From positions 1 through 46,167 of IMG/VR virus record IMGVR_UViG_3300030333_000746: DNA of 46,167 nucleotides. One strand, given 5' to 3'. Position numbers and translations under genes: made by a program. This document shows, piece by piece, positions 2,707-44,317 of the stretch. This DNA comes from a virus. The notes under the pieces are model-generated. The model had not been told where the DNA came from. It saw only the letters and a program-made list of their open reading frames with translations, and did not search any database. Within the stretch, counting starts at the first letter, position 1; the number at the start of each line of letters is the position of its first letter.

Positions 2707-3477
2707 ATGGCTACTACATTTCTACAACTAACCAATGAGTTACTTATAGAATTGAATGAGGTTCAACTTACCTCTTCTAATTTTGCAAGTGCGGTTGGAA
2801 TCCAACAACACGCTAAAGACTGCGTTAATCGTGCATACTTAGATATAGTTAACGAAGAACCTCAGTGGCCTTTTTTATCTGTAGGTGAAAGCGGTGCTAC
2901 CGATCCAATGTACGGAAATGTTTCTGTTGAAACAACAGCAGCAACTAGATGGTATGAATTAAAAGCAGCAAGTTCAGCATTAAAAGATGATTACTTGTCG
3001 ATAGATTGGGATAATTTTTATTTAACTACAGTAGGAGTCAGTGGTGAATCTGCTCCTTATGTTTCTAAGAATTTAAGTTTTGTAACTATAGAAGAATGGA
3101 AAGATTTTAGAAGGACTAGAGAAAATGCTGATGATGCAGATCAAGCTGTAGGTGGTGAACCCCGCCATGTAATAAGAAGTCCTGATGGTAGAAAGTTTGG
3201 ATTAAGTCCTATACCTGACAAAGCTTATAAGGTTTGGTATTTTGCATATGACTTACCAACACAACTATCAGCGTATGATGACGCTGTAGTTTTTCCAGAT
3301 GTTTACAAAACAGTAGTATTATCTAAAGCAAGATACTATGCACATCAGTTTAAGGATAACCCTCAAATGGCTGCATTTGCTTTAGAAGATTATAGAAAAG
3401 GCTTAAAGAGTATGAAAGAAAATCTTATAGGCCCAACACCAACTTATATATCTGACGATAGAATTAGGTATGTGTAA
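2707..3477 (+). CDS. Head-tail adaptor / tail tubular A-like protein
   Basis: A 256-residue protein resembling the tail tubular protein A (T7 gp11) and P22 gp4 type adaptors that bind below the portal and start the short tail. The N-terminal region (VNRAYLDIVNEEPQWPFL, about residues 41-58) has the typical helix with the Glu-Pro-Trp-Pro turn. The C-terminal half carries the Lys-rich helix KTVVLSKARYYAHQFKDNPQ. It follows the capsid cluster and its stop abuts the start of the hub gene at 3478, as expected for this role. Identity comes from motif and position. Confidence 0.7.
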   Translation: MATTFLQLTNELLIELNEVQLTSSNFASAVGIQQHAKDCVNRAYLDIVNEEPQWPFLSVGESGATDPMYGNVSVETTAATRWYELKAASSALKDDYLSIDWDNFYLTTVGVSGESAPYVSKNLSFVTIEEWKDFRRTRENADDADQAVGGEPRHVIRSPDGRKFGLSPIPDKAYKVWYFAYDLPTQLSAYDDAVVFPDVYKTVVLSKARYYAHQFKDNPQMAAFALEDYRKGLKSMKENLIGPTPTYISDDRIRYV

Positions 3478-5085
3478 ATGCAAGCATTTGGATTATCTTG
3501 TCAAGGTGGATTAAATACTAATTTAAATCAATTTCAAATGCTTCAGCAACCCGGATTTGCTACGGAGCTTTTAAATTTTGAAGTTGACCCCGATGGTGGC
3601 TACCGAAGAATAAATGGCTATACTCTTTTTGGAGGCGGTAGCGCAGCAAGACCTAATAGTTCAAATGGCATATTAGGTCTTTTTGTATATGCAGATGGAG
3701 TGATTGCTGCATCAGGAACTAATTTATATTTTAGTTTAGATGGAACAAGTTGGTTACAAATAAATCGTTCTAGCGTAAGTGGCTCTGGCGATAACTATTC
3801 TACATTTACAGGAAGAAGTGTAGCAGCTAGAACAACACAAGGACAAGTTACATTTGCTTTATTTGAAGGCGATAGTACTTATGGTGAAGTAGTAATTACT
3901 GATAAAGGTTCTGGTTGCAAACCTGCAATATTTAAAATGACAGGTTCAGGAGCGTTAAATACTAGAACTTTCTTTTATGAAGAAGTTACTGTTAGTGGAA
4001 CACACTATCCAAAAGTTTGTACAATACACGACAAACACTTAGTAGTGGCAGGAGCAGCTACGGCAGCTAATACTATCTTTTATAGTGGAACAAGTGATAT
4101 TAATAGTTTTTCATCTACTGGTTCTGGAAGTATTGTATTAGATGATCAAGTAGTAGGACTTAGAAGTTTCCGTGGCGATTTAATTATATTTTGTAAAAAC
4201 AGTATTTATAAATTAGTAAATATTAATGATTCAAATTCTATTGCAGTTGTACCTATAACTAAAAACGTAGGTTGCTTAGATGGACATAGTATTCAGGAAA
4301 TAGGTGGTGATCTTTTATTTCTTAGTCCTGACGGACTACGTTTAGTTGCAGGTACGGCCCGTATTGGTGACGTAGAGTTAAGTTCTGTATCAAGACAAAT
4401 ACAATCTATAATATCTGATATTGCAGCTTCTATAGATTCTTATATAATAACAAGTGCAGTATTAAGAAGTAAATCACAATACAGATTATTTTATAGTTCT
4501 TCTGTAGGGGCAACTAGTTCTTCTAAAGGTATTATAGGTACTATAACACCTCAAGGTTTTGAGTGGTCAGAAACAGAAGGAATACAAGCTCACGGGTTTA
4601 CATCAGGACTTGATAACGATAGTGTAGAGCAAATTTATCATGGCGATAAAGACGGCTATGTTTATAACCATAATACAGGAAATGATTTTAATCCGGCAGG
4701 AACACAAACAAATATAAAAGCTAGATATAAAACACCAAATTTAGATTTTGGAGATGCAGGAACATTAAAGACAATGCACTATGTAAAAATGTCTTTAACA
4801 CCTGAAGGTTCTATACAACCAAACTTAAAAGTTTCTTATGATTTTGACGATAATAATAAACCTCAACCTGCATCGTATTCTTTAGATAGTATACCATTAC
4901 CGACAATATTTGGTTCAGCAACATTTGGTACAGGAGTATTTGGAGCATCAACTGACCCAATGGTTAGACAGGCAGTACAAGGAAGTGGACATAATGTAGC
5001 TTTAAAACTATTTAGTGAAGATACAAAAGCACCGTACTCAATAAATGGATTCTATATAGATTATAGACCTTCTGGTAGGAGATAA
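3478..5085 (+). CDS. Tail hub / tail tubular B-like protein
   Basis: A 535-residue beta-rich protein with an N-terminal pattern common in phage tail hub proteins: a Gly-Gly-Leu start, a Pro-Gly-Phe-Ala turn, then NFEVDPDGGYRRINGYTLFG (about residues 37-56). Many marine podoviruses carry such a protein after the adaptor, with a role like P22 gp10 or T7 gp12, forming the nozzle that the fibers attach to. The ATG directly follows the upstream stop. The downstream fiber gene starts 3 nt after its stop, so the three tail genes are one translational unit. Confidence 0.65.
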   Translation: MQAFGLSCQGGLNTNLNQFQMLQQPGFATELLNFEVDPDGGYRRINGYTLFGGGSAARPNSSNGILGLFVYADGVIAASGTNLYFSLDGTSWLQINRSSVSGSGDNYSTFTGRSVAARTTQGQVTFALFEGDSTYGEVVITDKGSGCKPAIFKMTGSGALNTRTFFYEEVTVSGTHYPKVCTIHDKHLVVAGAATAANTIFYSGTSDINSFSSTGSGSIVLDDQVVGLRSFRGDLIIFCKNSIYKLVNINDSNSIAVVPITKNVGCLDGHSIQEIGGDLLFLSPDGLRLVAGTARIGDVELSSVSRQIQSIISDIAASIDSYIITSAVLRSKSQYRLFYSSSVGATSSSKGIIGTITPQGFEWSETEGIQAHGFTSGLDNDSVEQIYHGDKDGYVYNHNTGNDFNPAGTQTNIKARYKTPNLDFGDAGTLKTMHYVKMSLTPEGSIQPNLKVSYDFDDNNKPQPASYSLDSIPLPTIFGSATFGTGVFGASTDPMVRQAVQGSGHNVALKLFSEDTKAPYSINGFYIDYRPSGRR

Positions 5086-42973: not shown

Positions 42974-43174
42974 TTAACAATATTGTTTTTTAACTCCAGA
43001 TTTTTCTTGGTCATCATAACCTTTATTGTAGTCACTAATTTCTTTAGTATTTAAATCTGTTATTTTATTTGATTTTAAACTACGACCTTCATAATAATGA
43101 GGTTCTCTAGGTTTACCATAATAACAATCAGAAGAACCTCTATCATATGGGCCACCATGTCTTAAACTAATCAT
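42974..43174 (-). CDS. Small conserved phage protein with HGGPYDRG motif
   Basis: A 66-residue protein beginning MISLRHGGPYDRGSSDCYYG, then KPREPHYYEG. I recognise this Gly/Tyr-rich pattern from small proteins of many phages. The rest is charged, ending with a cysteine. Function unknown. Its start overlaps a possible 18-codon leader frame with a strong ribosome binding site, so it may be translated by coupling. Confidence 0.6.
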   Translation of the reverse strand: MISLRHGGPYDRGSSDCYYGKPREPHYYEGRSLKSNKITDLNTKEISDYNKGYDDQEKSGVKKQYC

Positions 43175-43223
43175 GTATTTCTCCCATTAATTTTACAAAA
43201 GTATAATGATCTAAATCTTCCAC
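43167..43223 (-). CDS. Possible 18-codon leader peptide
   Basis: A GTG-started frame (VEDLDHYTFVKLMGEIHD) with a perfect GGAGG 5 nt upstream. Its stop lies 8 nt inside the next gene, whose own start lacks a ribosome binding site apart from GGGAG inside this frame. It could be a coupling leader or chance. Confidence 0.3.
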   Translation of the reverse strand: MEDLDHYTFVKLMGEIHD

Positions 43224-43253
43224 ACTAACCTCCAAACTAACTCTTAAAGTGAT

Positions 43254-43367
43254 GGGCAAGGTAGGAATCGAACCTACAATATCTCAAAAATAGGATTTGT
43301 TATCTAATCCAGTATTCATATTGTGTATGCTTTTTATCTTGAGATATTCTCATGACCTTGCTTGCCC
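43254..43367 (-). ncRNA. tRNA-like RNA of unusual 114-nt form
   Basis: Minus strand, 5' to 3': a 7-nt GGGCAAG (43367-43361) pairs perfectly with CTTGCCC (43260-43254) as an acceptor stem. A perfect T arm has stem GTAGG/CCTAC and loop TTCGATT, fitting TTCRANY. Between them are 83 nt instead of the usual 40-55. A 10-bp stem, AATATCTCAA with TTGAGATATT, directly joins the T arm, enclosing a 51-nt loop that itself holds GGATT/AATCC. No standard D or anticodon arm fits well. A stem abutting the T arm recalls the tRNA domain of tmRNA, but the G3-U70 pair, pseudoknots and a degradation tag are not seen. CCA is not encoded. It could be a decayed or novel tRNA-like RNA. Confidence 0.6.
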
Positions 43368-43445
43368 TTAAAATAATATATTAACTACCATAAATACTAC
43401 AAATAAAACTGCTACAGCCATTCCCATAGCCCCTAGATTATCCAT
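43368..43445 (-). CDS. 25-residue membrane micropeptide
   Basis: A short frame (MDNLGAMGMAVAVLFVVFMV, then VNILF) that is almost entirely one transmembrane helix. AGAGAGGA lies about 10 nt before the ATG and the upstream gene stops 1 nt before it. Its stop codon is directly next to the first base of the tRNA-like RNA, so RNA processing there would remove the 3' end of this message. Translation is not proven, but a helix this clean with a ribosome binding site is unlikely by chance. Confidence 0.5.
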   Translation of the reverse strand: MDNLGAMGMAVAVLFVVFMVVNILF

Positions 43446-44041: not shown

Positions 44042-44317
44042 TTAAACTTTTAAGATTACTTTTATATTTTTATTTTTAGGATAAGAATCTGTAAACCATT
44101 CTCGTTCTGAAATAGCCCTCACTCCAGTATCAACTTTAGTAATATCTCCACCTGACTTAAAGAACTCTTCTATTTGTTCATTAATATTTAGTGGCTTTGA
44201 AGTTGTAGGTACAACATCTTTCTTTTCAACTTCAGTTTTGGTAGCAGTTAATTGTGCTAGTCCACTAGGAAAAGTAAAATGTTTGACATTACTTTTAAGT
44301 ACATAAGGTATGTTCAT
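44042..44317 (-). CDS. Small hypothetical protein with FFKSGGDITKV motif
   Basis: A 91-residue protein (MNIPYVLKSNVKHFTFPSGL...). The C-terminal half has IEEFFKSGGDITKVDTGVRA, comparable to IKAYVNSGGQIQKCTPC in the product at 39106-39354, so both may carry the same short helical domain. GAGAGG lies 8 nt before the ATG. Early expression is likely because it is close to the leftward promoter. Confidence 0.55.
   Translation of the reverse strand: MNIPYVLKSNVKHFTFPSGLAQLTATKTEVEKKDVVPTTSKPLNINEQIEEFFKSGGDITKVDTGVRAISEREWFTDSYPKNKNIKVILKV

What the first reader, a model, noticed from the sequence alone, without database searches (positions are those of the whole stretch)
43254..43367. 114-nt tRNA-like RNA with a tmRNA-like stem next to the T arm
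Acceptor and T arms are perfect, but the middle is 83 nt long, and a 10-bp stem abuts the T arm, enclosing 51 nt. This does not fit a normal tRNA, and is reminiscent of a reduced tmRNA tRNA domain without its mRNA part. It could act on tRNA-processing enzymes, on ribosomes, as an RNase P site that separates the early messages, or as an attachment site. It lies exactly between two micropeptide frames.
Basis: seen in the sequence. Interest (0 to 1): 0.75.

Follow-up and report, generated by a model that had tools for sequence, protein, structure and literature searches.

The report
Remodelled, non-decoding phage tyrosine tRNA
In a marine phage, the gene slot where close relatives carry an ordinary tyrosine tRNA holds a 114-nt RNA that keeps the amino-acid-acceptor half of that tRNA but has its codon-reading half replaced by a long hairpin; it is an unusual tRNA derivative whose function, if any, is unproven.

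Summary
The element is real and lies on the minus strand (43367->43254), co-directional with the early genes and abutting the stop codon of a 25-aa frame. It has a perfect 7-bp acceptor, a canonical T arm, no D arm, and a 10-bp Watson-Crick stem (12 bp with one G-U) abutting the T arm. That stem reaches its length in 0.03-0.06% of shuffles. ARAGORN and Rfam call neither tRNA nor tmRNA. Comparative evidence says what it is: the two nearest relatives with an RNA in this slot carry an ordinary tRNA-Tyr(GUA), with related 3' flanks; two other relatives have nothing there. The exact 24-nt T-arm/acceptor sequence belongs to tRNA-Tyr in 4 of 4 other viral genes. So it is a remodelled tRNA-Tyr whose decoding half was replaced. 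It is not a tmRNA by descent: the invariant G3-U70 pair, CCA and tag frame are missing, and tmRNA models score far below cut-off. Its layout, including 12 nt between acceptor and stem, resembles a tmRNA tRNA-like domain by convergence. Only this one genome has it, so covariation of the stem cannot be tested. Most likely it is a non-decoding relic that may still be cut out by RNase P/Z. A convergent SmpB/tmRNA decoy is possible but unproven.

The parts
43254..43367 (-). 114-nt tRNA-like RNA (remodelled tRNA-Tyr)
   Evidence: no ARAGORN or Rfam gathering hit
43361..43367 (-). 5' strand of acceptor stem, GGGCAAG
   Evidence: 7/7 WC with 43254-43260; two compensated pairs relative to L002/L083 tRNA-Tyr (GGACAGG/CCTGTCC)
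43349..43360 (-). 12-nt D-loop-like linker CAAGGTCATGAG without D stem; contains a GG that could contact the T loop (inferred)
   Evidence: sequence; tmRNA linkers are 10-13 nt (PMC1168896)
43337..43348 (-). 5' strand of the long stem, AATATCTCAAGA (10 WC + G-U + A-U)
43317..43329 (-). small hairpin CATA-CACAA-TATG inside the stem
   Evidence: fold
43293..43310 (-). hairpin GGATT-AGATAACA-AATCC (5 bp, 8-nt loop), at the distance from the T arm expected of an anticodon arm; no U33 and no GTA anticodon
   Evidence: fold; the middle has no significant similarity to tRNA-Tyr (p about 0.1-0.2)
43278..43289 (-). 3' strand of the long stem, TTTTGAGATATT, directly abutting the T arm
43261..43277 (-). 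T arm GTAGG-TTCGATT-CCTAC
   Evidence: exact 24-mer with 3' acceptor found otherwise in tRNA-Tyr genes
43254..43260 (-). 3' strand of acceptor stem, CTTGCCC
43250..43253 (-). ATCA in place of the ACCA (discriminator + CCA) of the relatives' tRNA-Tyr
43368..43445 (-). upstream 25-aa micropeptide frame MDNLGAMGMAV..., stop abuts the RNA
   Evidence: conserved in L082, L083, L084
43167..43223 (-). downstream 18-aa micropeptide frame (GTG start)
   Evidence: homologous ATG frames in L082 and L084

Best explanation
The RNA is a remodelled tRNA-Tyr(GUA) gene sitting in an optional tRNA slot of a marine podovirus-type phage distantly related to Pelagibacter phages such as HTVC115P. Acceptor stem, T arm and 3' flank of the ancestral tRNA remain; the D arm, anticodon arm and variable arm were replaced by 83 nt whose two ends pair into a 10-12-bp helix stacked on the T arm. 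It cannot read codons. Most likely it is co-transcribed with the early genes and, if it does anything, it is still recognised through its acceptor/T half by tRNA-processing enzymes (RNase P, RNase Z), which would excise it and cut the early message between the two micropeptide frames. Shown: anatomy, slot homology, loss of decoding parts, compensated acceptor. Inferred: transcription, processing, and whether it is still under selection.
For: Same slot holds an 82-nt (86 with ACCA) tRNA-Tyr(GUA) in L002/L084 (DNA polymerase 99% identical) and L083/L086; L082 and L007 have no RNA there. The window's T arm, 3' acceptor and downstream flank align with the tRNA-bearing relatives; the homologous block runs 43170-43277. 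Of 34 IMG/VR genes with this T-arm/acceptor pattern, 26 are tRNA-Tyr; all 4 with the identical 24-mer are tRNA-Tyr, as is the one complete bacterial case. Four acceptor differences from the relatives fall in two fully compensated pairs; four random changes leave 7/7 pairs in 0.3% of trials. The RF00005 model matches only T-arm positions 46-63, 13.6 bits.
Against: No second copy of the remodelled form was found, so selection on it is unshown. The middle shows no significant similarity to tRNA-Tyr (p about 0.1-0.2), so descent rests on slot, flank and the 3' half. The CCA is lost. The compensated acceptor pairs could predate the loss of the decoding half or come from import of another tRNA-Tyr type. 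A chimeric metagenome assembly at this spot cannot be excluded.
Confidence: 0.62

Rival explanations
1. Convergent tmRNA-domain mimic: the RNA folds like the tRNA-like domain of tmRNA and binds SmpB (or EF-Tu/ribosome), blocking trans-translation of the host during infection.
For: Same layout as a tmRNA tRNA-like domain: 7-bp acceptor, 12-nt linker (tmRNA 10-13 nt), long stem in the anticodon-stem position, T arm, no anticodon. Phage DS6A has a 'TLD only' tmRNA; such RNAs inhibit tmRNA, perhaps by titrating SmpB.
Against: G3-C70 instead of invariant G3-U70; no CCA; RF00023 gives no match at the RNA and RF04321 only 13.6 bits against cut-off 47; the stem abuts the T arm directly, without the GA non-Watson-Crick pairs described for tmRNA. 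One genome only.
Confidence: 0.1
2. Plain pseudogene: a recent recombination or insertion destroyed a phage tRNA-Tyr; nothing acts on the product, and the stem is incidental. (This shares the descent from tRNA-Tyr with the best explanation and differs only on whether the RNA is still processed or used.)
For: Slot is optional among relatives; CCA mutated; single occurrence; other phage contigs hold odd tRNA-like remnants.
Against: A stem this long exactly against the T arm is rare by chance (0.03-0.06%); acceptor and T arm are perfect.
Confidence: 0.35
3. Phage attachment site (attP) carrying a tRNA 3' end.
For: T arm plus 3' acceptor is the usual common core with host tRNA genes.
Against: The 5' acceptor strand is present too; no tyrosine integrase domain (PF00589) in the window record or seven related records, with all 14 control genomes ringing; the identical 24-mer occurs in only two of the held bacterial genomes, an Oscillospiraceae and a Ruminococcus MAG.
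Confidence: 0.03
4. Assembly or amplification artefact joining a tRNA-Tyr 3' half to unrelated sequence.
For: Metagenome contig, single occurrence, inverted repeat at the insert ends.
Against: The 5' acceptor strand complements the 3' strand perfectly, and homology to relatives resumes at once on both sides.
Confidence: 0.05

Closest known systems
Phage tRNA-Tyr(GUA), e.g. L002:3161-3246
   Same: Same slot and 3' flank, T arm, acceptor stem length, discriminator A.
   Different: No D arm, anticodon or variable arm; 32 nt longer; CCA replaced by TCA; two acceptor pairs changed with compensation.
tRNA-like domain of tmRNA (ssrA; RF00023, RF04321)
   Same: Acceptor + T arm + stemless D region of 10-13 nt + long stem in place of the anticodon stem.
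   Different: No G3-U70, no tag frame recognised, no CCA, no GA pairs between stem and T arm; models score far below cut-off; origin in tRNA-Tyr.
Mycobacterium phage DS6A 'TLD-only' tmRNA (PMC4131195, PMC11915505)
   Same: Phage-encoded tRNA-like domain without mRNA part.
   Different: The DS6A form is filed as a tmRNA, little more than its tRNA-like domain; the window RNA is 114 nt and of tRNA-Tyr descent. The DS6A record was not in the collection under the accessions tried, so no direct alignment was made.
tRNA gene fragments and pseudogenes in prokaryotes (PMC9897764)
   Same: T arm and acceptor kept, decoding part lost.
   Different: Those described are mostly partial copies from integration of mobile elements; here both acceptor strands are intact and the middle is a structured replacement.

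Membership tests
Canonical tRNA | Cloverleaf found by ARAGORN / RF00005 over cut-off | tested here: not met
   ARAGORN none at default, intron, mitochondrial and tmRNA settings; only low-quality fits at reduced thresholds; RF00005 13.6 bits, T arm only
Canonical tRNA | Acceptor stem 7 bp and T arm 5 bp with TTCRANN loop | tested here: met
Canonical tRNA | 7-nt anticodon loop with U33 and an anticodon | tested here: not met
   nearest hairpin has an 8-nt loop AGATAACA without U33
tRNA-Tyr by descent | Shared slot, flank and acceptor/T-arm sequence with tRNA-Tyr | tested here: met
tRNA-Tyr by descent | Recognisable similarity of the middle to tRNA-Tyr | tested here: not met
   p about 0.1-0.2 against shuffles
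tmRNA | Invariant G3-U70 pair (alanine identity) | tested here: not met
   G3-C70 in the window; invariance from PMC1168896 and PMC3985003
tmRNA | 10-13 nt between helix 1 and helix 2a, no D stem | tested here: met
   12 nt
tmRNA | Score over RF00023 / RF04321 cut-off | tested here: not met
tmRNA | Tag reading frame | tested here: not met
   no tmRNA by ARAGORN; only 47-51 nt inside the stem
tmRNA | SmpB binding, alanylation | not testable with these tools
   needs bench work
New structured RNA family | Stem kept by compensatory changes in relatives | tested here: inconclusive
   no relative with the stem found

The most novel reading that the evidence does not exclude
Probability: 0.1. Interest if true: 0.78.

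Novelty: new variant of a known kind. Interest (0 to 1): 0.42.

Why it matters
It shows, with close relatives as before/after states (empty slot, ordinary tRNA-Tyr, remodelled RNA), how a phage tRNA can lose its decoding half while keeping the acceptor/T half that processing enzymes, CCA adder and EF-Tu see. If the product is made and stable it would be a natural route from tRNA to a non-decoding regulatory or decoy RNA. Standard tRNA finders miss it, so such RNAs are probably under-counted in phages.

Tried and rejected
ARAGORN with default, intron, mitochondrial and tmRNA settings gave nothing; reduced thresholds gave only implausible fits, one labelled possible pseudogene. All of Rfam, gathering and permissive: only weak chance or T-arm matches. 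Plus-strand reading: folds, but the T arm is then at the wrong end and has no TTCRA loop. Intron-containing tRNA: rejected, no plausible anticodon arm to splice and no GTA. Simple insertion into an intact tRNA-Tyr: rejected, removing the stem-bounded 71 nt leaves no anticodon arm, and the middle has no significant similarity to tRNA-Tyr. Attachment site: no integrase domain. Search for further copies by acceptor/T-arm pattern, stem pattern, DNA similarity in phages and in 26 related records, and neighbouring genes: none. L124 was a chance overlap with a tRNA-Leu. A structural scan of 1.23 Mb of held loci for acceptor + T arm + long abutting stem gave only this RNA with a stem of 10 bp or more. 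DS6A could not be fetched for a direct comparison.

Full report
Observation. The segment 43254-43367 was read on both strands. On the minus strand it reads GGGCAAG (acceptor 5'), CAAGGTCATGAG (12 nt), AATATCTCAAGA (stem), 47 nt with two small hairpins, TTTTGAGATATT (stem), GTAGG-TTCGATT-CCTAC (T arm), CTTGCCC (acceptor 3'), then ATCA. The stem ends exactly at the T arm; shuffling the 83-nt middle gives an equally long stem at that place in 6 of 10,000 cases (2.5 of 10,000 with G-U allowed), and a stem that long anywhere in 0.8% (0.4%). Energy is better than dinucleotide shuffles, z -3.5. At 37 C the tRNA-like fold is within 0.7 kcal/mol of a rival fold that opens the T arm; at 15 C it is the minimum.

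Software fits. ARAGORN finds no tRNA or tmRNA, Rfam nothing at gathering scores. The tRNA model matches only the T arm (13.6 bits, positions 46-63). tmRNA models: RF00023 has no match at the RNA; RF04321 gives 13.6 bits against a cut-off of 47; beta_tmRNA 12.2 bits against 84.

What phage it is. The window is an IMG/VR record of 46,167 bp with a family A DNA polymerase, primase/helicase, ribonucleotide reductase, Cas4-like exonuclease, head and tail genes. The nearest named phages by polymerase are Pelagibacter phages HTVC115P, HTVC104P and HTVC103P (48-49% identity). No tyrosine integrase domain was found in it or in seven related records. The record may be incomplete.

The same place in relatives. 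L002/L084 (polymerase 99% identical) and L083/L086 carry an ordinary tRNA-Tyr(GUA), 82 nt plus ACCA, just after the same 25-aa frame MDNLGAMGMAV.... L082, also closely related, has no RNA: the stop of that frame is followed directly by GGAGGAACT and the next ATG. L007 also lacks it. DNA similarity between the window and L002 runs through the T arm, 3' acceptor and downstream flank (43170-43277, 76%), and stops at the decoding half. L002 and L083 also have a strong hairpin just before the tRNA that the window lacks.

Identity of the ends. Of 34 IMG/VR genes with the pattern GTAGGTTCRAWTCCTACCYTGYCC, 26 are tRNA-Tyr, and all 4 with exactly the window's 24 nt (L097, L107, L116, L119) are tRNA-Tyr. 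In the collection of 84,980 bacterial and archaeal species the 24-mer occurs twice, once in a complete tRNA-Tyr (L127) and once at a contig edge (L126). The acceptor differs from that of L002/L083 at four positions that form two compensated pairs; four random changes would leave all seven pairs Watson-Crick in 0.3% of trials. Either the acceptor was under pairing selection for some time, or a different tRNA-Tyr type was imported. The middle shows no significant similarity to tRNA-Tyr (p about 0.1-0.2), so the decoding half was probably replaced rather than worn down by point changes.

Reading. I conclude that this is a remodelled tRNA-Tyr that cannot decode. The anticodon is gone, the only hairpin at the right distance has an 8-nt loop without U33, and the CCA became TCA. 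What it does is not shown. The acceptor/T half is the part that RNase P and RNase Z read (established knowledge), so the most economical working model is excision from the early transcript, cutting between the two small frames, with or without benefit to the phage. A plain relic is nearly as likely.

Comparison with tmRNA. tmRNA's tRNA-like domain has 10-13 nt between acceptor and helix 2a, a helix 2a in place of the anticodon stem, and a T arm (PMC1168896). The window RNA matches this layout with 12 nt. It fails the invariant G3-U70 pair (PMC1168896, PMC3985003), has no recognised tag frame and no CCA, and has no GA pairs between stem and T arm. Thus it is not a member of tmRNA; it may work like its tRNA-like domain. 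Phage DS6A carries a tmRNA reduced to that domain, and such RNAs inhibit tmRNA (PMC4131195, PMC11915505). A convergent decoy is therefore a legitimate but unproven reading (about 10%).

Score. Not ordinary, since a structured replacement of a tRNA's decoding half with before/after relatives is unusual. But single-genome evidence and no proof of expression keep the interest moderate.

Noticed in passing
L033:53-109 (also L134, L135): A 57-nt tRNA-like RNA with acceptor, D arm and T arm but no anticodon arm in a more distant relative (polymerase 59% identical); RF00005 43.7 bits, over cut-off, missed by ARAGORN. The two contigs are 99.9% identical, so conservation is untested.
   Followed up: partly
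L005:2292-2359 and L021:5669-5737: About 10 nt after a tRNA-Cys(GCA), a conserved ~68-nt element GGGCATGGCTTGCAGAAATGCGTAGCC...CCGGATGCTTGGAATAGGC...TGCCC; its closing stem changes GGGCA/TGCCC to GGGTA/TACCC (compensatory). No Rfam match: a candidate unnamed phage RNA.
   Followed up: partly
L002:1316-1357, 2222-2267, 3092-3139: Three long intergenic hairpins of one design (A/T-rich outer stem, CCCTTC/GAAGGG-type inner stem, no U-run) between early genes, the last just before the tRNA-Tyr; possible RNA-processing sites.
   Followed up: no
L099:3989-4091, L109 (minus strand, T arm at 4689-4712), L125:11045-11159: Other odd long tRNA-like RNAs in viral contigs: 103 nt (RF00005 43 bits, missed by ARAGORN), 98 nt with an 8-nt anticodon loop (ARAGORN tRNA-???), and 115 nt found by neither at cut-off.
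   Followed up: partly
window 44042-44317 (-): 91-aa early protein with a weak match to the SutA RNA-polymerase-binding domain (PF20661, E 9e-6, below the curated cut-off): possible host RNA polymerase modulator.
   Followed up: no
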